Shown: positions 11,496 to 32,282, numbered from the stretch's first letter. The stretch: DNA of 64,000 nt from Spirochaetota bacterium (GCA_004297825.1 SCSX01000053.1:1-64000), one strand, 5' to 3'. The notes: generated from the letters alone by a model not told the origin. Numbers and translations: made by a program.

Positions 11496-12710
11496 ATGGA
11501 TCTTTTCGATAAATGCAGGGATTTTACGCTGGCCGACGAGGTCAAAGCCATGGGGCTGTATCCATTTTTTCATCCGATTACCGGCAACGAGGGGCCAATC
11601 GTGTACATGAACAACCGCAAAACGGTCATGGCCGGATCCAATAACTATCTCGGACTTACCACCGACCCGCGCGTAAAGGAAGCCACGATAGCCGCAACCA
11701 GGAAATACGGCTCCGGATGTTCGGGCTCGCGCTTCCTGAACGGCAGTCTCGACATACATTTCGAGCTCGAGGAAAAACTGGCGGAATTCACGGGAAAAGA
11801 GGCCGCCCTTCTTTATAGCACCGGTTTCCAGACGAACCAGGGCGCCATCGTAGGGATCATCAAGAAGGGCGATTATATCATTTCCGACAAGGAAAACCAC
11901 GCGAGCATTATCCAGGGCTGCCTCATCGCGAAGGCGACGTGCGGCCCCGAGACGCTGGTCACGTACGAGCACAATGACATGATGGACCTTGAGCGCGTTA
12001 TCAGCCGCCTTCCCCTCGACGCAGGAAAGCTCATTGTCGTGGACGGTGTTTTCAGCATGAATGGAGACATCATCAACCTTCCGGAGGTCGTGCGCATTGC
12101 ACGGAAATACAACGCACGCATCATGTGCGATGACGCGCACAGCCTGGGCGTATTGGGGGACCTGGGACGCGGAACAGCGAACCATTTCGGACTCACCGCG
12201 GACACGGATATAATCATGGGCACGTTCAGCAAGAGCCTGGCTTCTCAGGGGGGGTTCATTTCTTCCGAAAAGAACGTCCTCAACTTCATCAAGCACAATT
12301 CCCCGGCGCTCATCTACAACGCGAGCATGCCCGCCGGCCAGGTTGCCGCGGTGCTCAAAGCCCTGGAAATCATGCAGGCGGAACCGGAGCGGATTCGCAA
12401 GCTGCATTCGAACGCCCGGAAGATCCGCACGGGGCTTAGGGACCTCGGCTTCAATGTCAAGGACGGCGAAACGCCGGTGGTCCCCATTCTCATAAACGGC
12501 GACGACATGCTGTTTACATTCAGGTTCTGGCGCAAGCTCCTGGATAATGGGGTTTTTTCCAATCCCGTGATATACCCGGCGGTACCGGTCGGTATGCAGT
12601 TGATCCGGCTCAGTTTCATGGCCACGCACGAGGACGAACACCTCGATTTCGTGCTCGACCGTTTCGAGAAAATCGGCCGCGAAACAAAGATTCTCGACAA
12701 CGTGGCGTAA
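11496..12710 (+). CDS. Alpha-oxoamine synthase, serine palmitoyltransferase-like
   Basis: A 404-aa PLP enzyme of the family that condenses an amino acid with an acyl-CoA. Key residues are present: His135 (NHAS) stacks on PLP, Asp212-His215 (CDDAHSLG) binds its ring, and Lys246 (GTFSKSLASQGG) forms the Schiff base. Several stretches match serine palmitoyltransferase better than KBL or BioF: AGSNNYLGL (46-54), YGSGCSGSRFLNGSLDIH (71-88), VVDGVFSMNGDI (181-192), and the C-terminal PAVPVGMQLIRLSFMATHEDEHL read in part. It would make 3-ketosphinganine from serine and acyl-CoA. A 3-ketosphinganine-reductase-like gene lies 9 kb away. GGAGG ribosome-binding site 8 nt upstream. KBL or another 2-oxoamine synthase remains possible. 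Confidence 0.78.
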   Translation: MDLFDKCRDFTLADEVKAMGLYPFFHPITGNEGPIVYMNNRKTVMAGSNNYLGLTTDPRVKEATIAATRKYGSGCSGSRFLNGSLDIHFELEEKLAEFTGKEAALLYSTGFQTNQGAIVGIIKKGDYIISDKENHASIIQGCLIAKATCGPETLVTYEHNDMMDLERVISRLPLDAGKLIVVDGVFSMNGDIINLPEVVRIARKYNARIMCDDAHSLGVLGDLGRGTANHFGLTADTDIIMGTFSKSLASQGGFISSEKNVLNFIKHNSPALIYNASMPAGQVAAVLKALEIMQAEPERIRKLHSNARKIRTGLRDLGFNVKDGETPVVPILINGDDMLFTFRFWRKLLDNGVFSNPVIYPAVPVGMQLIRLSFMATHEDEHLDFVLDRFEKIGRETKILDNVA

Positions 12711-12763
12711 CGGTATCCGGATCGCCGGAAATGAAGACGAAGAAGCCACCAGGTGCGTCGCAA

Positions 12764-12796
12764 TCGTAGAGACGTCCCGCCGGGACGTCTCTACGA
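12764..12796. repeat. GTAGAGACG-type REP-like hairpin, copy 1
   Basis: Perfect 16-bp arms TCGTAGAGACGTCCCG and complement around a single base, between two convergent genes. A related hairpin with the same TAGAGACG ends lies at 42825-42857. There is no T-run after it, so a classical terminator is less likely. Confidence 0.8.
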
Positions 12797-12802
12797 TGAC
12801 GA

Positions 12803-13789
12803 CTACAATTTAAAATCCTTCCTTGTGAACAGTATCACACACGCGTCCACCGAGTCCCCGTCGTAGAGAGATCCCCGGTTCGCGGTGATCTCTTCCAGCG
12901 ATTTGTCGATACCCAGTGCGGCGCGGTAGGGCCTGTGCGAGGCCATGGCTTCGACCACGTCGGCGACTGCGATCACGCGGGACTCCTTGTGTATCTGCTC
13001 CCCCTGCAGCCCCTGGGGATACCCGGACCCGTCGATCTTCTCATGGTGCTGGTGGACGATTTCCGCCACGGGCCAGGGGAATTCTATGTTTTTTAATATA
13101 TCGTACCCCACCTGCGCATGCGTCTTGATAAGCCCGTATTCGAGGGGAAGGAGTTTGCCGGGACGGCTCAAAATTTCGGCGGGTATGGATATTTTGCCCA
13201 GATCGTGTATCACCCCCGCCATGCGAATGCCGTCGATCTGGTCATCGGTGAGCCAGAGCTCCTTCGCGATCGCGCGGGCGAGGTTCGCCACCCGTTTCTG
13301 GTGCCCCGCCGTGTACGGATCCCTTGTTTCCACCGTGAACACCATCGCCTCGATGATGGCGTTCATCGCGTTCCTGAGCTTCTGCAGCGTTTTCCGGGAT
13401 ACGTCTTCCGCCTTTTTTTTCGAGGTGATATCCCTGAACACGAACACGACACCGGTATTGTTCCCGTTTTCGTCCTGGACGGGTGACGCGTTGAAGCTGA
13501 TGGCGATATCGTGCCCCTCACGGCTTACCATTATGGAGCTCTCGTTCTCCACCGTGCTGCCGTCGGAAAGCACCTTGACGACGGGGTCGTCGATAATCGC
13601 CCGAGTATCCTCGTTGATGATGGTGAACAGCTTGATCAGGTCTTTGCCGAGCGCCTCTTCGTTGGTCCAACCCGTCAGGTTTTCACCCGCGTAATTCATA
13701 AAGGTTACAAGGCGATCCCTGTCGGTGGTTATGACCGCGTCACCGATACATTTTAATGTGGTCGAGAGCCATTGGTCGATGTGCTGCAT
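12803..13789 (-). CDS. PAS - HD-GYP domain protein (probable c-di-GMP phosphodiesterase)
   Basis: 328 aa. An N-terminal PAS domain (about residues 8-125, with GENLTGWTNEEALGKDLI and a VVFVFRDITSKKKAE exit) is followed by an HD-GYP domain (about 140-325). The metal-binding HD pair is in HDLGK (195-199), and the signature HHEKIDGSGYP (248-258) carries the GYP triplet, so hydrolysis of cyclic di-GMP is expected. No membrane segment, so it is cytosolic. The ribosome-binding site is weak. It is convergent with the SPT-like gene. A PilZ protein at 20.2 kb is another c-di-GMP element in the window. Confidence 0.9.
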   Translation of the reverse strand: MQHIDQWLSTTLKCIGDAVITTDRDRLVTFMNYAGENLTGWTNEEALGKDLIKLFTIINEDTRAIIDDPVVKVLSDGSTVENESSIMVSREGHDIAISFNASPVQDENGNNTGVVFVFRDITSKKKAEDVSRKTLQKLRNAMNAIIEAMVFTVETRDPYTAGHQKRVANLARAIAKELWLTDDQIDGIRMAGVIHDLGKISIPAEILSRPGKLLPLEYGLIKTHAQVGYDILKNIEFPWPVAEIVHQHHEKIDGSGYPQGLQGEQIHKESRVIAVADVVEAMASHRPYRAALGIDKSLEEITANRGSLYDGDSVDACVILFTRKDFKL

Positions 13790-13950
13790 GGTCTTTTGTG
13801 TGAAGAAATGCTGTTTTCTATATAGTAGCTCATCATAGCTTCCATTCTACAAATATCAAGATTTTTCTCACCCCCGGGAAAACCCCGTCATGCGCCTCTT
13901 TTCATATTGTGCTTGTGCTCACGCGCGAGGAAGAAGTATGGTGACCTTAA

Positions 13951-14304
<354 letters not shown>

Positions 14305-14318
14305 TATTTTTCAATGTC

Positions 14319-17231
14319 CTACAGTATTTTAAGCGGGCTCAGGAGTCCGCGGGCGCCCTCGTCCGATGCGCTTACCGTTTCCTGGGACCCCATGACCGCG
14401 CGCACGGGGTTTTTCCATGCCTCTGCCAATGATGACGCGAACGCACGGAAATCACTCAGCTCAGTGGAAAGCACCTCATCCCGGGTTCGCTGCCGCTGCT
14501 CCTCCGTGGATCCCGTGAGATGACGCTCCAGGGCGACGAATCCCTGCGCGGGGGGCAGCAGGTACGCATCAATCTCGCCGATCGCGCCGATGATGCCCTT
14601 ATGCAGCTCTTCTTTCGGAAGGTCGAGCGTCGACAGGAAGCGAGAAGCTTCCTCGAACACCCTCCACGTTGCGCTGATATTCGGGTCGCGGTAGGAGAGC
14701 ATGCTGAAAACCCCGGAGAGACGGTCGAAGCCGCACAGCGCTCCATACGCCCCGCCCTGCACCCGAACGCGCTCCCAGAGCATGGTTGTCCTGAGCAGGC
14801 GCGTGATCACGCGCACCGAACCGTGATAACGGTATCCGAACTGGTAAAGGTTTGCCGCGGCGCCCACGTAATTGACACGCGCGGGAATCAGGAGCGCCTC
14901 CATTTCCGGCATCACTTTCCGTTCCCAGTTCGCCCGTGACGGCGATCCCGCGGGCAGCGCGTCAATGAGATTGTGGACCGGTTCGCGGCATGACTCCCAG
15001 GCCCGGGAGTCGGCGGTTATGTTCATCATGATGCTGTTCCGGTCGACGAGCGTAGCGTGAATTTCCACGAGCAATTCCCGCACCGACTCCCATTCGCGCT
15101 CAATCGAGGCGTCCAGGCGCTGCAGGAACGACAGGTAACTCAACCCGGTCATCGTTTCCATCGCGGCGTCGGCGGGCGTATACCGGGAGCGAAGCCGCTG
15201 GTCAACATACCCGGTTCCGTTAGGCACCACGCGCGCCTCATTGCGCGATTTTTCTTCGCGAAGGATCTGAAGAAACCTGTCCTTGCGGCTGAAATCGGGC
15301 ACGGTGAGAATGTCCGCGAGGATGTCCGCGAGCTCGTGCGCCCGCGCCACGGTGGTCTTGCCTCGCAGGAACATCCATCCGGTCGGGTTCTCCGCGCCTT
15401 CCACCATCGACGAAAACAGCGCCCTGCGGATACCGCCGGTTTTCCCGCTGATCCGCTGGGACAGCGACAGGTAATCCTCTTTTTTGGTTCCCATCTCGAA
15501 AAGGGCCCTGCCGTAGAGGGGCAGATACGGCAGGAAGCGTTCCGGGAGCCTGGTAATATCGAGCCCCAGGTCCAGGTAGAGAATCCCGCTCGTAAAGATA
15601 TCGTGCATCAGCAATCGCGTGGCCCCATGGTTCGACCCGGACGAGGGAATCTGCTTGTTCCGCGTGTCAAGGTCAGCGAGCGCGAGGCGCGGGATTTTCG
15701 CAAGGGCCTCCGGGCTGTCCGGCCGGGTCTGGAGCGCCTTCAGTTTCGCCGTATTTTCGGCACAGTCCCTGGAGGCGTGCTCCCCGAGTTTCGAAAGCGC
15801 CGCCTGGACGCGCGCGCGTTCGCGGCGCAGGAGCTCATCCCCATAGGAATGGTCCGGTTTTAGAATGACCGTCGTTCGGTGCGCGTTTTTCAGGAAATAG
15901 CGCTCGATAAGCGATTCAAAAAATCGCCCGTCGCGGTCGTACGATTTTTTCACCGCGTCAAGGGGAGACTCGAACGCGAGCAGCGCGCACGGGTCCTCGT
16001 CATAGAGCCAGGTGGTAAGCGCGCGCAGCATGAGCACGAGGCCGCGCGGCATCTGTCCGGTGTTATTCTCCCTGAAGCGGAATTCCACGGTATTGAGCCC
16101 CGCTTCAATTGTCCGCGGATCGATCCCGCCATGAGCGATTTTTTCCAGGGTATCGAGCACCAGGGCTTCCATCGCCGGCGCCTTTTCCGGGTCGATGTTC
16201 CTGAGGCCCGTCGAGAAATACATCTGGCGGATTTCGTTGTTGAGCCCCTGCCCGGCGATCCCCTCCCCCAGGCCCGAATCCAGGAGCGCCTTGCGAAGCG
16301 GGGACGCAGGCATACCCATAAGTATGTATTCCAGTACCTGCATCGCGATATTGACCGCCGGGGCGGTGCCCTCCGGCAGGAGCCAGTTGATAGTCGTTAT
16401 GCCCTTGGCGCCATCACCGTCGGCGCCGTCAACGAAGGGCCGGGTGACCGTGGAGCGTAATTCCCGGGAAGCCTGCAGGGGGATTGCGGAATCGACCGGG
16501 ACCGCATCGAACTGGTCGAGGTATTCGGCCAGTATGCGCAGCCTGGCCTCCGGCGCGTCGTTCCCGTAGAAATATATCCACGAATTGGAGGGATGGTAAT
16601 ATCGGCGATGAAATCCCCGTAGACCCTCGAAGGTAAGCTCCGTGATATGTTCGGGATCCCCCCCCGATTCGAGGCCGTAGATCGTCCCGGGGAAAAGGGA
16701 ATACTGGGAAAACGAACCGCTCAGGCTCTCCGGGGAGGAATAATCCCCTTTCATCTCGTTGTATACGACACCTTTGAATTCGGGCTCTTTCCCGGGATCG
16801 AGCTCGATATGCCAGCCCTCCTGCTCGAATACGTGATCGGTGAGCCTGGGGAAAAATACCGCGTCCAGGTACACGTCGACCAGGTTGTAAAAATCCTGGG
16901 TGTTCTGGCTTGCGACAGGGTAGCAGGTCTTGTCCGGGTAGGTCATGGCGTTCAGGAATGTTTTTAGCGATCCCTTGAGGAGCTCCACGAAAGGTTCCCT
17001 GACCGGGTACTTGCGCGAACCGCACAGCACCGAGTGCTCCAGGATGTGCGCGACGCCCGTTGAATCGGAGGGCGGCGTTCGGAAGCTTATCCCGAACACC
17101 TTGTTGTCGTCGTCATTGGATATCGAAAGCAGGCGGGCGCCGGTCTTCACGTGCCGGTACAGCGACGCCTCCCCGTTGATCTCGTCGATTTTTCTCGTGG
17201 TGAGCAGCTCGAATCCGTGCAGTAAGCCCAT
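14319..17231 (-). CDS. M16C family zinc metalloprotease (presequence-protease-like)
   Basis: A 970-aa insulinase-superfamily protease. The inverted zinc motif HxxEH is in VAHILEHSVLCGS near residue 62, with the downstream ELLKGSLKTFLNAMTYPDKTCYPVASQN read in parts (LKTFLNAMTYPDKT) typical of the M16C group (PreP, Cym1, FtsH-linked falcilysin type). The length covers the usual four homologous domains in one chain. No clear signal peptide, so it is probably cytosolic and degrades short peptides. It is a single gene: rnpB converges on its 3' end and 233 bp of unremarkable DNA precede it. Confidence 0.92.
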   Translation of the reverse strand: MGLLHGFELLTTRKIDEINGEASLYRHVKTGARLLSISNDDDNKVFGISFRTPPSDSTGVAHILEHSVLCGSRKYPVREPFVELLKGSLKTFLNAMTYPDKTCYPVASQNTQDFYNLVDVYLDAVFFPRLTDHVFEQEGWHIELDPGKEPEFKGVVYNEMKGDYSSPESLSGSFSQYSLFPGTIYGLESGGDPEHITELTFEGLRGFHRRYYHPSNSWIYFYGNDAPEARLRILAEYLDQFDAVPVDSAIPLQASRELRSTVTRPFVDGADGDGAKGITTINWLLPEGTAPAVNIAMQVLEYILMGMPASPLRKALLDSGLGEGIAGQGLNNEIRQMYFSTGLRNIDPEKAPAMEALVLDTLEKIAHGGIDPRTIEAGLNTVEFRFRENNTGQMPRGLVLMLRALTTWLYDEDPCALLAFESPLDAVKKSYDRDGRFFESLIERYFLKNAHRTTVILKPDHSYGDELLRRERARVQAALSKLGEHASRDCAENTAKLKALQTRPDSPEALAKIPRLALADLDTRNKQIPSSGSNHGATRLLMHDIFTSGILYLDLGLDITRLPERFLPYLPLYGRALFEMGTKKEDYLSLSQRISGKTGGIRRALFSSMVEGAENPTGWMFLRGKTTVARAHELADILADILTVPDFSRKDRFLQILREEKSRNEARVVPNGTGYVDQRLRSRYTPADAAMETMTGLSYLSFLQRLDASIEREWESVRELLVEIHATLVDRNSIMMNITADSRAWESCREPVHNLIDALPAGSPSRANWERKVMPEMEALLIPARVNYVGAAANLYQFGYRYHGSVRVITRLLRTTMLWERVRVQGGAYGALCGFDRLSGVFSMLSYRDPNISATWRVFEEASRFLSTLDLPKEELHKGIIGAIGEIDAYLLPPAQGFVALERHLTGSTEEQRQRTRDEVLSTELSDFRAFASSLAEAWKNPVRAVMGSQETVSASDEGARGLLSPLKIL

Positions 17232-17464
17232 GGTCGTATACCCTGAAATTAATATTTATGCTGTTCCGAACAAACCTCATCGCGGGGAAACCACATGCTG
17301 CGGAAGTTTCCTCTTTGAATCATACCCGCGGGCGGCAGGCAGTCGCTTTTTTGCCGCCCTGAGAAACATAGTCTACCGCGGCTCGCGTCCAGCGCAAGTA
17401 CGAAACGCGGACGGTTGCTGCACGCGGCGAATTCTCGACCGCGTGTATCGCCTGCATTCGCACG

Positions 17465-18409
17465 TCAGGAACAGAGCATGCCCTGGAAACTGCCCCGGCG
17501 CATGAGCTCCTCCTCTATCGCCCTGAGCACCGTCCCCTTGTGAAGCGCCCACAGCGGGGCGACGAGCGTGGCCGGCGGGCGGTCGCCGATAAGCCGGTGA
17601 ATGATAATGTCGGGCCGCAGCCTCTCAAGGAAATCGCACGCCGACGAGACATACTCTTCCAGTCCCAGGGGGCTGAATTTTCCTTCCCGAAACGCCTTTT
17701 CCAGCTGCGTGCCTCGTATAACGTGCAGATGGTGCAGCTTCACGCCGCGCACGGGCAGCGACGAAACCAGGGCCGCCGTATCCATTATATCCTTCCAGCT
17801 TTCGCCGGGGATGCCCAGTATAAGATGTGTGCATACCGGGATACCCCGAAGCGCCGCGCGGGACACGGCATCGACGGTGTCGGCATTCGTGTGCCTGCGG
17901 CCGAGCGTCTCCAGGCTCTTGTCGTGCGCGCTCTGCATGCCGAGCTCCAGCCACAGCTCGAAGCCCTCGCGCGCATACCCCGCGATGAGATCGAGCGTTT
18001 CGTCGGGGACGCAGTCGGGCCTTGTCGCGATCATGAGCCCCGTCACGCCGGGCTCCCCCAGCGCGGCATCGTACAGCCTTTTCAGCACATCGACGGGGGC
18101 ATACGTGTTGGTGAAGGCCTGAAAATACGCGATGTAGAGCGTATCGGCGCCCGCCCTGCGGAAACTCTCCCTGGCTGTCCGCATCTGGAGGTGGATATCT
18201 TCCGTTCCCGCGGAGGTCGGGGACGCCGATCCGTCTTCTCCGCAGAATACGCACCCCCGGGTATCCAGCGTTCCGTCGCGGTTGGGACACGTGAGCCGCG
18301 CGTCGATGGGGAGCTTGAGCACGCGGCACCCGAATTTTTTCAGGAGATAATCCCCGAAAAAATTATACGGCTTCCCTTCCCGCCCCCCGTGCTCAGAGCG
18401 AACGGTCAC
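17465..18409 (-). CDS. TIGR01212-family radical SAM protein (YhcC-like)
   Basis: 314 aa. KLPIDARLTCPNRDG followed by GCVFC gives the family's spaced cysteines for the [4Fe-4S] cluster (C41, then a C-x2-C around 53-56). GLMIATRPDCVPDETLDLI and HLILGIPGESWKDIMDT are further radical SAM barrel motifs. Reaction unknown; E. coli YhcC is the best-known relative. The start is GTG with a perfectly placed GGAGGAAC. It overlaps the end of the amidase gene by 17 bp, so the two are co-transcribed. Confidence 0.88.
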   Translation of the reverse strand: MTVRSEHGGREGKPYNFFGDYLLKKFGCRVLKLPIDARLTCPNRDGTLDTRGCVFCGEDGSASPTSAGTEDIHLQMRTARESFRRAGADTLYIAYFQAFTNTYAPVDVLKRLYDAALGEPGVTGLMIATRPDCVPDETLDLIAGYAREGFELWLELGMQSAHDKSLETLGRRHTNADTVDAVSRAALRGIPVCTHLILGIPGESWKDIMDTAALVSSLPVRGVKLHHLHVIRGTQLEKAFREGKFSPLGLEEYVSSACDFLERLRPDIIIHRLIGDRPPATLVAPLWALHKGTVLRAIEEELMRRGSFQGMLCS

Positions 18410-20102
18410 GTTCCTCCGCGGAAAAATACGAGTTCTTCAGGTACTGGTGGTTCTGATACATGCACGGGTTTATCCGCACCTGGGCGACGGCCTCGACATT
18501 GGTCACGACCAGGTCCTCGCCAAGCGTCACCACGTACAGCCCCGGCCCGAAGTTGAACTTCGCCCCGTTGATCCACACCTGCCCGAATGAGCGCACGAGC
18601 TTTGCCAGCGCGTCCTTGTCCGGATTGAGCGCCCTCACGATCGCATCCTCAAGGCTCATGCCCTCCTCCACGGGAAAAATCACCGGTGTCGTGAGGGGCA
18701 TCTTCCGGTAGGCGGCCGCAAAATACGGGGAGGGGCAGATTTTCGGTGCGGCGTCCGCATCGGCGGCGGGCAGGATGAGCTTCGAATATTCCGTGTTGTA
18801 CTTCACATCGAGCGCGTACAGGAGCGCCCTGCTGTTTATGGTTTTCTTTGCGAGGCTCAGGTATGCCCCCGCGTCCCGATGCTTGTCGCTGAGCATCAGC
18901 TGCCGTCCCGTCTGGTAATAGCCCTCCGCCTGGGTGATGATGGTGCGAATGTCCTTGAAGGGAACCAGGTGCTGCGGGACCGGGTTGTCGGACAGTTTCT
19001 CCATCTCGGCCATGACCTCGAAGGCCTTGGCGAACTCCGACGTTTTCACGTAATACAGGGCAATCCGCGAAAGCTTGAAGACAGTGAGCGCCGCCTCCGG
19101 CACGTCCTTCACCTTAACCGGCGAGGCGCCCGATATATCGACGCCAAAGGTTTCCTTCACGGTATCGAGAAGCGTTTCATACTCGGCGCGCGCTATCTTC
19201 TTCTGGTTGTCGCTTTTGCGCAAAAAGGATTCCTCCTCGGGATTGCAGATAAATCCCGTTTCGAAAATGAGGGAAACCGGGAAGTCGACGAAATAGGTAA
19301 ATCGCTCGTCTCCCACGCACCCATTCTCCCAGCCGTTCGATTTCATGCCCAGGTCGATGAGCTTTTTCTTCAGGGTTTGCGCGTATTTGAGGGAAAAGCC
19401 CGACGCATCGACCCGGTTATAGAGCGTGAGGAATCCGCGATATGCGAACCGCACGTTCGCGATGAACCGGGCCCCCGTCTCGTCCGTCGTGATGTGAATC
19501 CCGGGGATGTTCACGTACCCGTACGCCTTCTGGGTCTGCGCCACGTTGTTCAGGTGCTGGCTTATCGCCATGAACGCGTTCGAATCGAATGCCCGCTGCA
19601 CTATGCCGTGCAGGAAGATGTTGCTGTAGCTGTCGCTTTTCCCCCTGAGCACCTTTAGGTAATCGTCCGTGGTGCGTATTTCCACCATGGGATTCGCGGC
19701 GAGAAGCGCGTAGAGCTCGCGCGCGAGCAGCATGGAATAGTACTCCTCGGTAAGTCCCGTAGAGCTTATGCGGTTGGTCGCCTCCCCCTCCCAGTAGCCG
19801 TTCGCGTACCGTCCGTGGGCGGGGCCGAAGAAGATCACGAGCTTCCGTCCCGCCTTGAGCTTATCGTACAGGTTCCCATACGTCTCCTCGATGCGCTGCG
19901 CCATCGCAAGCACCTGTTTCGCGCTCGCGGCGTTCCGCTCGCGGGCCAGCACCCTCTGGACAGCCTCCGGCTGACCCGCGAACGCGTAGGGGTACTGCGC
20001 GTGCGCTGCCCCCGGAAGGAACGGGTCGGTGCCCGTAAACAGCATGGAGAGGATGATTACCGATACGATCGTCGTTGTGCGCGTGAAACGGGAGAGAATC
20101 AT
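18393..20102 (-). CDS. Exported N-acetylmuramoyl-L-alanine amidase-like protein
   Basis: 569 aa from the start I prefer at 20102. A signal peptide is visible (TIVSVIILSMLFTG, cleavage after AAHAQ near residue 36). The central domain (about 100-340) resembles Amidase_3 zinc amidases: IFFGPAHGRYANGY has the first His region, AFMAISQHLNN a second His region and LIFETGFICNPEEESFL the conserved Glu and N-x-x-E motif. A C-terminal ~220 residues are unassigned. It would cleave stem peptides from peptidoglycan in the periplasm, or be a diverged relative. The ribosome-binding site is weak. Co-transcribed with the downstream radical SAM gene. Confidence 0.7.
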   Translation of the reverse strand: MILSRFTRTTTIVSVIILSMLFTGTDPFLPGAAHAQYPYAFAGQPEAVQRVLARERNAASAKQVLAMAQRIEETYGNLYDKLKAGRKLVIFFGPAHGRYANGYWEGEATNRISSTGLTEEYYSMLLARELYALLAANPMVEIRTTDDYLKVLRGKSDSYSNIFLHGIVQRAFDSNAFMAISQHLNNVAQTQKAYGYVNIPGIHITTDETGARFIANVRFAYRGFLTLYNRVDASGFSLKYAQTLKKKLIDLGMKSNGWENGCVGDERFTYFVDFPVSLIFETGFICNPEEESFLRKSDNQKKIARAEYETLLDTVKETFGVDISGASPVKVKDVPEAALTVFKLSRIALYYVKTSEFAKAFEVMAEMEKLSDNPVPQHLVPFKDIRTIITQAEGYYQTGRQLMLSDKHRDAGAYLSLAKKTINSRALLYALDVKYNTEYSKLILPAADADAAPKICPSPYFAAAYRKMPLTTPVIFPVEEGMSLEDAIVRALNPDKDALAKLVRSFGQVWINGAKFNFGPGLYVVTLGEDLVVTNVEAVAQVRINPCMYQNHQYLKNSYFSAEERDRSL

Positions 20103-20239
20103 AGGGCACCAGCCGGAATGAACAATTATCGCGAACCGTAGTGTATTAATAATATCGACTCCCGCAAGAAAATAATTGTATTTTTTACCATTGAATTGCA
20201 TAGTGAGGCATGGAGCGAAAAAAGAGGCTAGGTGGTCCC

Positions 20240-20896
20240 ATGCGCAGGAATGCCATAAAATTCGAAGAGCTCTCCTCCGAAATCAAAAAAGAAATCGAGA
20301 AATTCTGGCTTCGCCAGAAGGAGTTCGGAGACCAGTGCACCATGGAACAGGCGATGACGCAGTGGTTCGAGGAGGAGTTCGACATATGGATGATCACGAA
20401 CTACACCTCCAAGATCCGCGGAGACCGCCGCGCCGCGGAGCGCCGAAAGCACGCACGCCTGGAGATGGAGAAGGAAGCGGAGGCCCAGGCGAAAAAGGAC
20501 GCCAAGAGCGATCGGAGAGCCGCTCCACGCCGTAAAAAGTACCGCCTGGACATCGAGGTACCGGTAAGAATCGTCGAGACCCTCATCGAATCGTCCTCGG
20601 ATGACCGGGAGGCGATCGATTTCATAGGCACCCTGGTGAATATCAGCCGTGGCGGGTTCTACTTCCGCTCCGCCAAGGAATTCGAGCCATCGAGCATCAT
20701 CCGCGTGAACATCGACCTCTCCAAGCTCGATCCGGATCTCCGGGACATAGAAGCGCTGGCAATGGTCATCCGCTCGGAAAGGCTCACCCCCGAGTACTAT
20801 GGGGTGGGCGTCATGTTTTCGAGCATTTACCACGAAGCGAAGGAAAAGCTCGATACCTTCATATTCAAGCATCTCGCGTATTACGTGTACTCATAA
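20240..20896 (+). CDS. PilZ domain protein (c-di-GMP receptor)
   Basis: 218 aa from 20240, where AGGTGG lies 6-8 nt upstream (an in-frame ATG at 20210 lacks a spaced site). An N-terminal charged helical region (residues 1-100, RRAAERRKHARLEMEKEAEA) precedes a PilZ domain. That domain contains RRAAPRRKKYRL (about 103-114) as the RxxxR motif and NISRGGFYF (about 145-153) as the [D/N]xSxxG motif. It should bind cyclic di-GMP. It is followed 22 bp later by the extended SDR gene, perhaps in one transcript. Target of control unknown. Confidence 0.87.
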   Translation: MRRNAIKFEELSSEIKKEIEKFWLRQKEFGDQCTMEQAMTQWFEEEFDIWMITNYTSKIRGDRRAAERRKHARLEMEKEAEAQAKKDAKSDRRAAPRRKKYRLDIEVPVRIVETLIESSSDDREAIDFIGTLVNISRGGFYFRSAKEFEPSSIIRVNIDLSKLDPDLRDIEALAMVIRSERLTPEYYGVGVMFSSIYHEAKEKLDTFIFKHLAYYVYS

Positions 20897-20918
20897 ATCC
20901 CCGTTCCCGGATAACGCT

Positions 20919-21947
20919 ATGCCAACTCGCAAACTCGCATCGAAAAATGTGCTCATCACCGGCGCGACAGGTTTTATCGGCGGTCACCTGGTAAGGGCCA
21001 ATTTAAAAAAGAAAAAACACGTGCGCGCGTTCGTCCTGCCCGGCGACCCGGGAGAGGCGGCCCTGAAAAAATTGGGCGTCGATATTGCTTACGGCGATAT
21101 CAGCGACTACGAATCCGTAAAAAAGGCATTGAAGGGGATCGATACCGTCTTTCACTGCGCCGCGGTGGTCACCGATTGGGCGCCCTGGAGCCTTTTCGAA
21201 AAGGTGACGATCCGCGGGACCGAGAACATCTGCCGCGCCGCCGCCCAGGCGAAGGTGCGCCGCTTCGTCGACATGAGCACCAACGACGTATTCGGGGTCG
21301 ACGAGTCCGCCGTGATGGACGAGACCTTCCCGCTGCGGCCGTGGAAGGAGCCCTACCCCGACGCGAAGATCGAGGCCGAAAAAATTTCGTGGCGCTACCA
21401 CAGGGAGCACGGGCTCCCCGTTACGATGGTATACCCGTGCTGGGTGTACGGCGAGGGCGACCTGACCTTCGTTCCCAGCCTGGCGGACGCGATCGTGAAG
21501 CGGGACCTCATCTTCTGGCGCAAAGACGTGCTGGTATGGCCCACGTACATCGAAAACCTCGTCGACCTTCTCCTGCTCATCTCGGAAGACCCGCGCGCCG
21601 TGGGTAACGGTTACCTCGTGCATGACGGTGAATCGGTCACGCTGCAGGAGTTCTGTGCGGGGATCGCGGACACGCTCGGCGTAAAACCCATCACCACGCA
21701 CATCCCCTACTTCCTCGCCTACGCGGCGGGAATCGCGATGGAAGGGCTCTGGAAGCTCATGAAGAAAAAAACCAGGCCGCTGCTTACCACCTACACGGTG
21801 ATCAACCTGGGTTCGCGCTTCCGCTTCACGATCGGTAAGGCGGAGAAAGAGCTCGGCTGGAAGCCACGGGTTTCATATAAGGAAGGCTTCACACGCACCA
21901 TGCAGTGGCTCAAGGCCCTTGACCTGGAATCGCTCACGTTAAAATAG
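20919..21947 (+). CDS. NAD(P)-dependent extended SDR (epimerase/dehydratase/3beta-HSD-like)
   Basis: 342 aa. Rossmann motif GATGFIG at 15-21 and catalytic Y146-x3-K150 (YPDAK), with MSTNDVFG as the active-site Ser/Thr region and VYPCWVYGEGD further on: the layout of 3beta-hydroxysteroid dehydrogenase/epimerase-like SDRs. It lies 12 bp upstream of the 3-ketosphinganine-reductase-like gene. In Caulobacter an atypical extended SDR (ceramide reductase, CerR) belongs to the sphingolipid cluster. An equivalent role here is a hypothesis, and a sugar or lipid-head-group epimerase is equally compatible. Confidence 0.82.
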   Translation: MPTRKLASKNVLITGATGFIGGHLVRANLKKKKHVRAFVLPGDPGEAALKKLGVDIAYGDISDYESVKKALKGIDTVFHCAAVVTDWAPWSLFEKVTIRGTENICRAAAQAKVRRFVDMSTNDVFGVDESAVMDETFPLRPWKEPYPDAKIEAEKISWRYHREHGLPVTMVYPCWVYGEGDLTFVPSLADAIVKRDLIFWRKDVLVWPTYIENLVDLLLLISEDPRAVGNGYLVHDGESVTLQEFCAGIADTLGVKPITTHIPYFLAYAAGIAMEGLWKLMKKKTRPLLTTYTVINLGSRFRFTIGKAEKELGWKPRVSYKEGFTRTMQWLKALDLESLTLK

Positions 21948-21959
21948 CGGAGACAACCC

Positions 21960-22781
21960 ATGAAAGATTTCGCCGGTAAAAACGTCTATCTCACCGGGGG
22001 CTCGGCCGGTATCGGTCTTTCGACCGCGAAACTCCTGGCTGCCCGGGGCGCGCACATCATCATTTTCGCGCGTACGAAGGAGCGCCTCAAGAGTGCGGTC
22101 GCGGAGATATCGGCGTGTAAAAAAAGCGCCGGCCAGAAAATCGAGTACATGGAGCTCGACGTCTCGGACGACCGCGCGGTGCGCAAGGTGATGAAGAAGG
22201 CCGTTTCTTCGTTTGGGGCCCCGGACCTGCTTATCAACAACGCAGGGCGCGCGTATCCGCGCCGCTTCGAGGACATTTCATTTACCCAGTTCGAGGAGAC
22301 GATGAGGACCAACCTCTACGGAATGTGGAGCACCATCTCCGCCCTCCTGCCCTCAATGAAGGATCGCGGCGGCCACATCGTCAACGTTTCCTCCATGGTC
22401 GGTTTCATGGGCGTGTACGGGTACGCCGATTACGCCGCGAGCAAATTCGGCATCATCGGCCTTTCGGAGACGCTTAAGAGCGAGCTCGCCGAATACAAGA
22501 TCGGGATATCGGTGCTCTGCCCCCCCGATACCGATACCCCCGGCTTCAAGACCGAGAATATCACCAAGCCCGAAGAAACAAAGGCGATATCCGCGGCGGC
22601 GAAGGTCATGACCCCGGACGCGGTCGCGGAGCGGCTCGTCAAGGGGATTCGCAAAAAGCAGTTCATGATAATCCCGGGTTTCGACGGCCATTTCACCTGG
22701 CTCGCCAAGCGTTTCACCCCATGGCTCGTCGAATGGGTCATGAATATGAGCGTAAGGAAAGTCCAGGAAGCGCGGGATTGA
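21960..22781 (+). CDS. Classical SDR resembling 3-ketodihydrosphingosine reductase
   Basis: 273 aa. Cofactor loop TGGSAGIG (12-19), NNAGRA (93-98), catalytic Ser144/145, Tyr158 and Lys162 (YADYAASKFG). The stretch CPPDTDTPGFKTEN followed by ITKPEETKAIS (187-211) is strongly reminiscent of eukaryotic KDSR/Tsc10, which has PPDTDTPG and KP-ET in the same place. The C-terminus (WLAKRFTPWLVEWVMN) is hydrophobic and may touch the membrane. It would reduce 3-ketosphinganine to sphinganine with NADPH, the step after the SPT-like enzyme at 11.5 kb. GCGGAG ribosome-binding site. A hairpin follows the stop. Confidence 0.8.
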   Translation: MKDFAGKNVYLTGGSAGIGLSTAKLLAARGAHIIIFARTKERLKSAVAEISACKKSAGQKIEYMELDVSDDRAVRKVMKKAVSSFGAPDLLINNAGRAYPRRFEDISFTQFEETMRTNLYGMWSTISALLPSMKDRGGHIVNVSSMVGFMGVYGYADYAASKFGIIGLSETLKSELAEYKIGISVLCPPDTDTPGFKTENITKPEETKAISAAAKVMTPDAVAERLVKGIRKKQFMIIPGFDGHFTWLAKRFTPWLVEWVMNMSVRKVQEARD

Positions 22782-29260: not shown

Positions 29261-31057
29261 TTATGGCTGGGAAATATCCCTGAAACTGCTCACAAAATCC
29301 GCAAACTGGTTTTTAATTTCCGGGTCCCGCTCCTGCTCCCAGAGCCTCTCAAATATTCCCTTATATCCCCTTCGGGACCTTACCAAGGAATCATAAAACC
29401 TAACGTAGGCACCCATGGCCCGCTGGATACCGAATGTAGAGGCGGTATCAATTAAGCGCTCCCAGAACGAGAGGGATCCGCTGTATGTCCGCGCTTTCCA
29501 TGCTTTGTCGGCCATGAAGTAGGAAGCGGCGCGCGAATTCCTTTTCGAATATAATTGGACGAGACAATCATACGCCATATACGCTGTGACAAGCGGACTC
29601 CCATGAACCAAACTGTGTAATTCGATGTTGGATTCCATCAGGTCGGTCGCGCTCAGAGACAGGAAATAGTCAACCGAGCCGGGCTCTCCATATAAGTATG
29701 TTCCCCGTTCCTGGCTTTCCACGTAATTCGGTGAACCCGGAAGTGCGGTGATGCACGTCGATTGGAGGCCGATGTTATTCGACCGGCAAAACTCGGCTAT
29801 CTCCTTTCCAGTGTGATCCGAAAGTGAATCAAACCGATCAAAAGGAAGACCCAATATGAATGCTCCAAGAATCGCGATGCCCTGATCCTGTATTTTTTTC
29901 ACGGCGCGTGCGTAATACTCTGATACGCCCAGGCCGCTGTGTTCGATTAGAGGTACGACACCTTTACCAATGTGCTTGAGGTTACGGATATCCAGTGATT
30001 CGAAGCCTATAAAAAAGCATGATGCACCTGCCCGGCGCAGCTTTGCAAGCAGCTCTTCGTTGTGCGCAATCTCTATCGACACCTGCGTGGTAAAATTCAT
30101 GGTTACACGACTTCGGATAATATTATCCAGGATTCCGTCCAACGTTTTCCCTCCCAGCAGTATGTTGTCGGGATAGAAAAAGAAATACCTTGTCCTTAAT
30201 TTTACTCCGTCTTTCTGAACTTCGCGTATCTCCTCCACGAAGTCCTTGGGACTGCGTGCATGGAATTTCCTTCGCAGCATAGGCAGGGATGCAATTGAAC
30301 AAAACTTGCACGAATGGGGGCATCCGACATACGGGGTGGTCACATTTACACGGGTTTTACCGGCCAACAATAGTTTAATGGGATTTAAGGTTAATCCCAT
30401 TTTCTTACGGATTGGTGGAAGCTCCTTCACATCCGAGCACCCCCATACGCCATCCTCGATTGTCTTGCCACCCATATAAACGTTCATTAGCCCATTCGTA
30501 CGCCAATCATTGATGATCCTTTTAAGCGTGCCTGAATCACCAGCTCCTATTACCGTACTTACGAGTCTAGAATTCTTCGCATATTTCCTGATGAAGGTGT
30601 CCACATCGTCGGGCTGCAATGAAACGTGGACCCCACCAAGAACTACCGGGATATTCACCCTGTTTAGCACGATCGCCGCCAATGCGGCGGCGGGGAAGTT
30701 TGTGCTCATGCAGGTGATGAACACGATACCGGGTTTAGACCGTTCACTTAATATTATCTCCTTGAAAGTCCGCCGCTTCCCATCGGCCAAGATTACCCTA
30801 CTGCTCGGATCGGCCGCACATATCTGATTGGCGATATAGTACGAACCATAGTTTTCATATGGGAAAAAATTGATTCGGTTTGCACGTTCCTTAGATGAAT
30901 CGAAATTTAAATAAGACAGGTAGTTATGCTCGTTTACTACGGACGCTTTCTGCCTCGTCAAATAGCCAAGCAACCCTTCCGGATAGATAATGCCGCTGCT
31001 TAAGTGATCCATAAAATTGTACTGTAATGGATTATAAAGGATATGGTAACTGCTCAT
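29261..31057 (-). CDS. B12-binding-type radical SAM enzyme, coupled to lipid methyltransferase gene
   Basis: 598 aa from the ATG at 31057. The N-terminal half has a cobalamin-type Rossmann fold (IPVVLGGVHVSLQPDD, about 150-165), though no clear DxHxxG motif. The radical SAM cluster motif is C-x3-C-x2-C in GCPHSCKFCSIA (about 252-263). FIGFESLD and GAFILGLPFDRFDSL are barrel motifs, and AKS-like C-terminal helices follow. It probably performs a radical methylation, ring closure or carbon-carbon bond reaction. The start lies one base after the TAA of the CFA synthase-like gene, so the two are translated together and probably act on the same lipid. AT-richer than the genome background. Confidence 0.85.
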   Translation of the reverse strand: MSSYHILYNPLQYNFMDHLSSGIIYPEGLLGYLTRQKASVVNEHNYLSYLNFDSSKERANRINFFPYENYGSYYIANQICAADPSSRVILADGKRRTFKEIILSERSKPGIVFITCMSTNFPAAALAAIVLNRVNIPVVLGGVHVSLQPDDVDTFIRKYAKNSRLVSTVIGAGDSGTLKRIINDWRTNGLMNVYMGGKTIEDGVWGCSDVKELPPIRKKMGLTLNPIKLLLAGKTRVNVTTPYVGCPHSCKFCSIASLPMLRRKFHARSPKDFVEEIREVQKDGVKLRTRYFFFYPDNILLGGKTLDGILDNIIRSRVTMNFTTQVSIEIAHNEELLAKLRRAGASCFFIGFESLDIRNLKHIGKGVVPLIEHSGLGVSEYYARAVKKIQDQGIAILGAFILGLPFDRFDSLSDHTGKEIAEFCRSNNIGLQSTCITALPGSPNYVESQERGTYLYGEPGSVDYFLSLSATDLMESNIELHSLVHGSPLVTAYMAYDCLVQLYSKRNSRAASYFMADKAWKARTYSGSLSFWERLIDTASTFGIQRAMGAYVRFYDSLVRSRRGYKGIFERLWEQERDPEIKNQFADFVSSFRDISQP

Positions 31058-31058
31058 T

Positions 31059-32282
31059 TTACCATGCGGAATAGACAGATATATCCGAAAGGGGTGAACC
31101 ATATGGCATCTTCTCGAATACCATCTGAGCCAAAGAGGTTCCAGTTTCCATCGCGGCACCACCCATTTGCCAAGAGTATTCATGGCTGCGGTAAAGTTTT
31201 TCCGGGTAGCGTTTAAGTATCTCGTTCCGGTTCTTCTGCATATTTTTCAGCCATTCTTGCGCCGTGCGTGTATAATGGATGCCAAACGTGTCATAATGCA
31301 GGAGGCGCAGCAACCCGGACCGAAGCGCCGATTTCACGACCTGCGAGGGCGTAGGCGAATCCGCATTGGGCATGAGCACAGATGAAAAATTCAGGTGTTT
31401 CTCGGTCCCTCCGCTCATAAAGAGGTCGACCCCGTGGTATATCATCGTGTGGAGAACGAACCTTCCCCCTTCCCGCAGGTGATCCGCGACGATTTTGATG
31501 AATGAATCCATGTAGGGCCGTCCCACATGTTCGGCCATTCCAACCGACACGATGCTATCATAAGTCCCTTTTATCTCACGGTAATCGAGATACTCGAAAT
31601 CGAGTTGCGGATATTTTTCCTTGCAGTACCTGATCTGCTCATCGCAGAGCGCGATTCCCTTTACACGCGCGCCCGTGGTGCTGCTGATGAAGTTAGTGAG
31701 CGTCCCCCAGCCGCAGCCAATCTCGAGCACGCTGTTCTTCTTTTCGATCTTCGCTTTTCGCGTGATGAGCCTCATCTTGTACTCCTGCGCTTCTTCCAGG
31801 GTCGCGTCGGGGCGCGGCCAGATCGCGCAGGAATAATTCATGGAGGGGCCAAGCATCATCTCATAGAAATCATTGCCGATGCCGTAGGTGACGCCCACCT
31901 CCCTTCTGCAATTTTCCAGGGTATTTTGGGTTCGACGCCTGATGCGTTTTCGCAAAAGGCGGGCGCGGATATCGATACGCGAAAAGCGTGCATTAAGCCT
32001 TCGGAAGCGCTCTTCGTTGAGCATGAAGACTAGCAATACAAGATACATCGATGGTGATTTCCATTTCCCGTTCACATATCCCATACCCAGCGCGAATTCA
32101 CCCTGCGTCAGAATTTCATAGATAAGGCTGTCGTCCGTTATATTCATCATTCCGGAGGGCTCCTTGGCCGGGTCGCCAAACTCGTACCGTTTTCCCGAAG
32201 ATATATAATTTATTACCAAGTGCCCGTTTACTATATCGCCTAGTACATTGTGGAATATCTTTCTCGCAATCGCAGTTTTCAT
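31059..32282 (-). CDS. Cyclopropane-fatty-acyl-phospholipid synthase-type methyltransferase
   Basis: 407 aa. SAM-binding VLEIGCGWG at 185-193. The bicarbonate/active-site residues of E. coli Cfa all have counterparts: Cys152 (MNYSCAIW), Glu252 (GMAEHVG), His279 (VLHTM) and Tyr338 (FGIHYTRT), so it should be catalytically competent. Family members add a methylene across, or a methyl onto, the double bond of a membrane fatty acid. With PAI-like flavoenzymes and a radical SAM partner nearby, the product may be something other than a plain cyclopropane. It lies 89 bp downstream of the sensor kinase gene, without a strong ribosome-binding site. Confidence 0.92.
   Translation of the reverse strand: MKTAIARKIFHNVLGDIVNGHLVINYISSGKRYEFGDPAKEPSGMMNITDDSLIYEILTQGEFALGMGYVNGKWKSPSMYLVLLVFMLNEERFRRLNARFSRIDIRARLLRKRIRRRTQNTLENCRREVGVTYGIGNDFYEMMLGPSMNYSCAIWPRPDATLEEAQEYKMRLITRKAKIEKKNSVLEIGCGWGTLTNFISSTTGARVKGIALCDEQIRYCKEKYPQLDFEYLDYREIKGTYDSIVSVGMAEHVGRPYMDSFIKIVADHLREGGRFVLHTMIYHGVDLFMSGGTEKHLNFSSVLMPNADSPTPSQVVKSALRSGLLRLLHYDTFGIHYTRTAQEWLKNMQKNRNEILKRYPEKLYRSHEYSWQMGGAAMETGTSLAQMVFEKMPYGSPLSDISVYSAW

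What the first reader, a model, noticed from the sequence alone, without database searches (positions are those of the whole stretch)
11496..22781. Putative bacterial sphingolipid pathway split over 11 kb
An SPT-like condensing enzyme (11496-12710) and an SDR with the KDSR-like PPDTDTPG and KPEET motifs (21960-22781) would make sphinganine from serine and acyl-CoA. An extended SDR (20919-21947) adjacent to the reductase may correspond to Caulobacter CerR. Sphingolipids are known in few bacterial phyla, and a KDSR-like reductase would resemble the eukaryotic order of steps.
Basis: partly seen in the sequence, partly recalled or inferred. Interest (0 to 1): 0.75.

Follow-up and report, generated by a model that had tools for sequence, protein, structure and literature searches.

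The report
Spirochaete sphingolipid genes with KDSR-type reductase
This uncultured spirochaete carries genes to make ceramide-type membrane lipids with a reductase resembling the animal and fungal enzyme; in other spirochaetes the same reductase gene sits directly beside the first gene of the pathway, which suggests a eukaryote-like route in a bacterial phylum where it does not appear to have been described.

Summary
The three genes are present at the stated coordinates. The genome belongs to an uncultured spirochaete.

The 11496-12710 protein is a serine palmitoyltransferase (SPT) by phylogeny. It lies in a 34-row SPT clade (support 100/100) with Bacteroidota, Rubrobacter and Rahnella SPTs. 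Kbl, BioF and HemA fall outside.

The 21960-22781 SDR is best read as a 3-ketosphinganine reductase (KDSR/Tsc10-like). Among solved structures Tsc10 gives the best single-domain match to its family profile. In six other spirochaete genomes of four families a homologue is the immediate neighbour of SPT. In two of these (G011, G271) a ceramide-synthase-like acyltransferase (bCerS type) is in the same operon. The window's genome has a bCerS homologue on another contig (C65), so the core pathway looks complete but scattered.

Caveats: no biochemistry. SPT scores miss NCBIfam cut-offs. Several relatives keep the extended-SDR/KDSR pair without any SPT, so that pair may have another or additional role.

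Verdict: a new variant of a known kind, SPT + KDSR + bacterial-type CerS in Spirochaetota.

The parts
11496..12710 (+). SPT-clade alpha-oxoamine synthase (probable serine palmitoyltransferase), 404 aa; the only match to itself in the genome at E<=1e-40
21960..22781 (+). KDSR/Tsc10-like short-chain dehydrogenase, 273 aa; probable 3-ketosphinganine reductase; homologues adjacent to SPT in six other spirochaete genomes
20919..21947 (+). Extended SDR (OleD/HpnA/3beta-HSD-like), 342 aa, 12 bp upstream of the KDSR-like gene; conserved partner of it in this order; not CerR; role in the pathway unproven
20210..20896 (+). PilZ-domain protein, same strand, 22 bp upstream of the extended SDR; conserved in the same-genus genome; possible transcript leader, not assigned to the pathway

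Best explanation
The window encodes two core enzymes of a de novo sphingolipid pathway in a spirochaete. SPT (11496-12710) condenses L-serine with an acyl thioester to 3-ketosphinganine. A cytosolic KDSR-type SDR (21960-22781) reduces it to sphinganine with NAD(P)H. A bCerS-type GNAT acyltransferase encoded elsewhere in the genome (contig C65:13249-14358) then N-acylates it to dihydroceramide. Shown here: homology, phylogeny, conserved gene order in relatives, and presence of all three genes in one genome. Inferred: the substrates, the reduction-first order, and that the window's own unlinked copies act together. The extended SDR 20919-21947 is a conserved companion of the KDSR gene but is not CerR.
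For: SPT: best PDB match is Sphingobacterium SPT 3a2b at 413 bits, against 272 or less for BioF/KBL-type enzymes and 222 for cysteate acyltransferase. ML tree of 62 alpha-oxoamine synthases puts it in the SPT clade 100/100, with KBL/BioF/HemA outside. KDSR: the A3 family profile gives Tsc10 8jat the best single-domain PDB score (149 bits; FabG-type 142 or less) and aligns across the PGFxxENxTKP substrate loop. The tree separates the clade with Tsc10 from FabG, clavaldehyde DH and Fox2. Linkage: KDSR-like gene directly next to SPT in G011, G067, G106, G181, G271, G278. In G271 the order is bCerS-KDSR-SPT; in G011 it is LPG_synthase_TM-GT4-PMT_2-GNAT-KDSR-SPT. A profile built only from SPT-linked KDSRs ranks the window protein first of the genome's SDRs tested: 358 bits against 279, 146, 143. 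bCerS: the own GNAT is 31% identical full length to the acyltransferase of a Rahnella acyl-AMP ligase/CerR/ACP/SPT operon. The family is adjacent to SPT in Ignavibacteria, Verrucomicrobia, Saprospiraceae and Chitinophagaceae. G011 has SPT, GNAT and KDSR in one operon and no CerR-model match at E<=1e-30.
Against: In this genome the three genes are unlinked. G010, G019, G023 and G035 have the KDSR orthologue (most with the extended SDR) but no SPT match at 1e-40; G035 is 96% complete. None of the NCBIfam SPT equivalog cut-offs is met (503 against 640 bits). Tsc10 sits on a very long branch, so its exact place is unsure. The order-wide co-occurrence of SPT and KDSR (14 of 15 against 6 of 31 genomes) is confounded by shared ancestry. 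No lipid data exist.
Confidence: 0.74

Rival explanations
1. The extended SDR + KDSR-like pair belongs to another lipid or secondary-metabolite pathway (for example reduction of another 3-keto lipid), and the genome's SPT works with a different, unlinked reductase.
For: The pair stays together in genomes without SPT: G035 with a further SDR and a small hydrophobic protein, also G023 and G019. The extended SDR is about 70-76% conserved in them. In the window the pair is 8.2 kb from SPT and in no shared operon.
Against: In G011 the SPT partner is a KDSR of the same 12-row clade as the window protein, and no extended SDR of this kind is present. Six spirochaete genomes place a KDSR of this superclade beside SPT. 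The window SDR is the genome's best match to SPT-linked KDSRs.
Confidence: 0.22
2. Caulobacter-type order: bCerS acylates 3-ketosphinganine first, and the extended SDR (or one of its paralogues) is a CerR that reduces 3-keto-ceramide.
For: A CerR-like extended SDR is divergently adjacent to SPT in Ignavibacteria and the window protein shares about 26% identity with it. The genome has a bCerS homologue.
Against: The window protein matches the Rahnella CerR only weakly (50 bits) and falls in a clade of spirochaete paralogues outside all CerR rows. Two other own proteins score higher with the CerR model and none stands out. G011 has no match to that model at E<=1e-30.
Confidence: 0.12
3. The alpha-oxoamine synthase uses another amino acid (alanine, cysteate, glycine), so the product is a 1-deoxysphingolipid, sulfonolipid or another amino-lipid.
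For: Substrate cannot be read from sequence with certainty; NCBIfam SPT cut-offs are not met. 1-deoxy and sulfur-containing sphingolipids are reported from anoxic water (PMC11334938).
Against: Nearest solved enzymes are SPTs by a wide margin over cysteate acyltransferase 28eh (413 against 222 bits), and the tree puts it within the SPT clade.
Confidence: 0.12

Closest known systems
Bacteroides thetaiotaomicron SPT BT_0870 and KDSR BT_0972 (Lee et al. 2022, PMC9278070)
   Same: SPT of the same clade type (Parabacteroides SPT is in the same 34-row clade) and an NADPH-dependent SDR assigned to 3-ketosphinganine reduction; in both cases the two genes are not clustered in the genome.
   Different: BT_0972 is reported as a partial homologue of Tsc10/human KDSR. 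The window-type KDSR had no close relative in four Bacteroidales MAGs searched (no match at 1e-25), and in other spirochaetes it is operonic with SPT and bCerS. BT_0972 itself was not available for direct comparison.
Caulobacter-type ceramide pathway (Spt, bCerS, CerR, AasR, AcpR; PMC11087976, PMC11324152, PMC9386255)
   Same: SPT plus a GNAT-type ceramide synthase homologous to that of CerR-containing operons.
   Different: CerR appears replaced by a KDSR-type SDR. In G011 no CerR-model match was found at E<=1e-30. No dedicated acyl-AMP ligase or ACP beside SPT.
Eukaryotic SPT - KDSR/Tsc10 - ceramide synthase pathway
   Same: Same inferred chemistry and order for the first two steps; the SDR profile is closest to Tsc10 (8jat) per domain among solved structures.
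   Different: Homodimer-type bacterial SPT, soluble-looking SDR, and an unrelated bacterial GNAT-type ceramide synthase instead of the eukaryotic multi-span one (the eukaryotic side is from general knowledge).
Pseudomonas MYb115 PKS-linked sphingolipid cluster (PMC12134224)
   Same: A KDSR-homologous SDR with an SPT-type enzyme in a bacterial cluster.
   Different: Acyl chain made by a dedicated polyketide synthase as a secondary metabolite; no PKS here.

Membership tests
Serine palmitoyltransferase | Groups with characterised SPT types and not with KBL, BioF or HemA in a tree | tested here: met
   62-row ML tree, SPT clade 100/100
Serine palmitoyltransferase | Conserved AOS/SPT catalytic residues (N, H, PLP-K, R) | tested here: met
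   N49, H135, K246, R371; equivalents named in PMC9304779
Serine palmitoyltransferase | NCBIfam SPT equivalog cut-off (NF047600 640 bits; NF047599 500; NF047603 670) | tested here: not met
   503, 362, 303 bits. The SPT of the bCerS-KDSR-SPT operon of G271 also misses it (511), so the models may not cover spirochaetes; the window protein is not filed under those equivalogs
Serine palmitoyltransferase | Serine + acyl-CoA/ACP to 3-ketosphinganine activity | not testable with these tools
   no biochemistry
KDSR/Tsc10 | Classical SDR with GxxxGxG, YxxxK, and a PGFxxENxxKP substrate-loop segment | tested here: met
   the 8jat Tsc10 chain itself shares the PGFxxENxTKP part, not PPDTDT
KDSR/Tsc10 | Closer to Tsc10 than to FabG and other SDRs | tested here: met
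   best single-domain PDB score with family profile; trees, with Tsc10 on a long branch. Single-sequence phmmer ranks it only 7th
KDSR/Tsc10 | Functional link to SPT | tested here: met
   met for the family: adjacent to SPT in 6 genomes. The window copy itself is 9.2 kb away
KDSR/Tsc10 | 3-ketosphinganine reductase activity | not testable with these tools
   no biochemistry
CerR (ceramide reductase) for 20919-21947 | Groups with CerR of SPT operons | tested here: not met
   tree and profile ranking
bCerS for own-genome C65:13249-14358 | Full-length homology to the GNAT of CerR/AasR/AcpR/SPT operons | tested here: met
   31% over 370 aa, 1e-46 to 1e-48, to Rahnella; family adjacent to SPT in several phyla

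The most novel reading that the evidence does not exclude
Spirochaetes use a distinct third arrangement of ceramide synthesis: bacterial SPT, a eukaryote-type KDSR and a bacterial GNAT ceramide synthase, with CerR absent in at least some lineages, so that reduction precedes N-acylation as in eukaryotes. This would contradict the statement that Spt, bCerS and CerR are found in all sphingolipid-making bacteria (PMC11087976).
Probability: 0.55. Interest if true: 0.72.

Novelty: new variant of a known kind. Interest (0 to 1): 0.6.

Why it matters
The order of the last two steps of bacterial ceramide synthesis is disputed, and KDSR is called unusual in bacteria outside Bacteroides and Prevotella (PMC11087976, PMC12134224). 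Operons that join SPT, KDSR and a bacterial ceramide synthase in one phylum make the reduction-first order directly testable. They also offer a source of well-linked bacterial KDSRs for asking where the eukaryotic reductase came from. SPT is widespread in Spirochaetota (46 of 296 sampled genomes, 30 of 138 genera), and two of the KDSR-SPT genomes are single-contig.

Tried and rejected
- CerR for the extended SDR: rejected.
- BioF/KBL/HemA for the SPT: rejected by tree.
- L067/L068 (Hyphomonadaceae) as Caulobacter SPT references: they fall with BioF, so Rahnella and Pseudomonas plasmid operons were used instead.
- Nat Chem Biol paper on convergent ceramide synthesis: not held, so whether it already lists spirochaetes could not be checked. 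Library searches for sphingolipids in Spirochaetota gave no relevant paper.
- Structure prediction: not run.
- Bacteroidales genomes for a BT_0972 comparison gave no P0003 match at 1e-25.
- Plasmid-borne SDR search gave only generic SDRs.

Full report
OBSERVATION. SPT (404 aa) has the AOS catalytic residues N49, H135, K246 and R371. The SDR (273 aa) has TGGSAGIG, YAASK, PPDTDTPG and KPEET. The extended SDR ends 12 bp before the SDR and starts 22 bp after a PilZ gene. SPT ends 8,208 bp before the extended SDR. The genes between are PAS-HD, PreP-type peptidase, MnmL, an amidase and PilZ. They have no evident link to lipid synthesis, so this is a scattered pathway, not an operon.

ORGANISM. A same-genus contig (L025, SPT 85% identical) is titled 'uncultured Spirochaetes bacterium'. 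The genome is 4.89 Mb in 96 contigs, 95% complete.

SPT. The best solved relative is Sphingobacterium SPT (3a2b, 413 bits), ahead of Sphingomonas-type SPT (276), BioF/KBL-type enzymes (272 or less) and cysteate acyltransferase (222). A 62-row ML tree with annotated KBL, BioF and HemA references places it in a 34-row SPT clade (100/100). That clade also holds Parabacteroides, Rubrobacter, Aureispira, Ignavibacteria, and the SPTs of Rahnella and Pseudomonas operons that carry acyl-AMP ligase, CerR, ACP and bCerS. Its nearest neighbours are other spirochaete SPTs, including those of G011 and G030, and then Ignavibacteria/Saprospiraceae. It misses all NCBIfam SPT cut-offs. So does the SPT of a clear bCerS-KDSR-SPT operon in G271, which suggests the models are too narrow for this phylum. 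I treat the serine specificity as likely, not shown.

KDSR. With the single protein, phmmer ranks Tsc10 only seventh in the PDB. With a 15-row family profile, Tsc10 (8jat) gives the best single-domain score (149 bits). The one chain with a higher total, 2et6, reaches it by adding two domains of about 90 bits. The Tsc10 alignment runs through the PGFxxENxTKP loop. Trees put the window protein in a clade that excludes FabG, clavaldehyde dehydrogenase and Fox2 and that includes Tsc10 and all SPT-linked SDRs. Tsc10 is on a very long branch, so its precise position is unsure.

GENE LINKAGE, the strongest evidence. In a sample of 296 spirochaete genomes, SPT (47% identity or more) occurs in 46 genomes of 30 genera. 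Outside the window's own order only five genomes carry the window-type KDSR at E<=1e-60, and in four of them it is the gene immediately beside SPT: G067, G106, G181, G271. The fifth, G091, has it near the end of a 6.6 kb contig. G278 has a 38% homologue in the same place, and so does G011 in the window's order. The two genes are separated by about 100 bp or less, and in G271 they overlap. In G271 the order is bCerS-KDSR-SPT, flanked by MlaE/MlaF/MlaD-type and MMPL transporters. In G011 it is LPG_synthase_TM, GT4 glycosyltransferase, PMT_2, GNAT, KDSR, SPT, a plausible glycosphingolipid operon. A profile built only from six SPT-linked KDSRs ranks the window SDR first among the own-genome SDRs tested (358 against 279, 146 and 143 bits).

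CERAMIDE SYNTHASE. The GNAT of the G011 operon has a 53% homologue in the window's genome at C65:13249-14358. It is homologous over full length to the acyltransferase of the Rahnella operon (31%, 1e-46 to 1e-48) and of Rubrobacter and Aureispira SPT loci. Family members lie next to SPT in Ignavibacteria, Verrucomicrobia, Saprospiraceae and Chitinophagaceae. In this genome and six relatives it is neighboured by a conserved PAP2_3-family membrane protein. A phosphosphingolipid head-group transferase is one possible role, untested and weakly supported (no informative PDB match).

EXTENDED SDR. Its similarity to CerR is low (50 bits to Rahnella CerR, 74-97 to the others). Seven own-genome proteins match the CerR model and the window protein is not the best of them. 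The tree places it among spirochaete paralogues, outside all CerR rows. NCBIfam's best, sub-cut-off matches are OleD and HpnA. Its partnership with KDSR across this order, also in G035, G023 and G019, is real but unexplained; in f1 genomes of genus g2 the two genes lie on separate contigs.

WHAT SPEAKS AGAINST. G035 (96% complete), G010, G023 and G019 have the KDSR orthologue without an SPT match at 1e-40. Either SPT was lost, or missed in incomplete MAGs, or the reductase has another substrate. Order-wide co-occurrence (SPT with KDSR 14/15 against 6/31; with bCerS 13/15 against 10/31) is confounded by kinship.

COMPARISON WITH KNOWN SYSTEMS. Caulobacter uses SPT, then bCerS, then periplasmic CerR, and the authors state that these core enzymes are found in all sphingolipid-making bacteria, with BT_0972 as a possible extra KDSR (PMC11087976). 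B. thetaiotaomicron BT_0972 is the characterised bacterial KDSR (PMC9278070), and KDSR is called unusual in bacteria outside Bacteroides and Prevotella (PMC12134224). Sphingolipid potential from SPT-like genes is already predicted for members of 38 phyla in the Black Sea (PMC11334938), whose main text does not mention spirochaetes. What is new here is the KDSR-SPT(-bCerS) gene linkage in Spirochaetota, and G011 as a lineage where CerR was not found and KDSR is operonic. I found no paper on this in the held library, but the key 2022 paper was not held.

VERDICT. SPT: very likely. KDSR role: likely. Complete core pathway in the genome: likely. CerR: rejected. Order of steps and products: inferred.

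Noticed in passing
L248-L255 (G017, G031, G033, G032, G029, G025, G040, G038; family f7): Conserved cluster of an alpha-oxoamine synthase outside the SPT clade and an acyl-AMP ligase (about 33% to Rahnella AasR) in all eight, a KDSR-like SDR with PPDTDTPG-type motif 3-4 kb from the synthase in seven (not G038), and a bCerS-like GNAT adjacent in G017 and G038: possibly a second, divergent sphingoid or amino-lipid pathway.
   Followed up: partly
L151 (G035), L153 (G003), L155-L158, L166, L168: Cassette extended SDR - KDSR - (second SDR) - about 133-aa hydrophobic protein, also present in G035 and G019, which lack SPT; function unknown.
   Followed up: partly
L256:8436-9398 (own genome C65), and L170, L171, L172, L176, L177, L182: PAP2_3-family membrane protein with CPSGH and HY..D motifs conserved next to the bCerS homologue in seven genomes; candidate head-group phosphotransferase.
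   Followed up: partly
window 29261-32282, - strand: B12-binding/radical SAM protein overlapping a cyclopropane-fatty-acid-synthase-type methyltransferase; may be a lipid-modifying pair.
   Followed up: no
L272:1575-2699 (Pseudomonas veronii plasmid): A gene at the bCerS position of an SPT operon is annotated YghO, suggesting that the YghO family is ceramide-synthase-like.
   Followed up: no
L056 (record titled Paenibacillus sp. MAG): Its SPT groups tightly with a Muribaculaceae SPT (100/100), so the contig is probably mis-binned.
   Followed up: no
L277 (G271): The bCerS-KDSR-SPT operon is flanked by MlaE/MlaF/MlaD-type lipid-transport genes and an MMPL exporter, fitting an envelope lipid.
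   Followed up: partly
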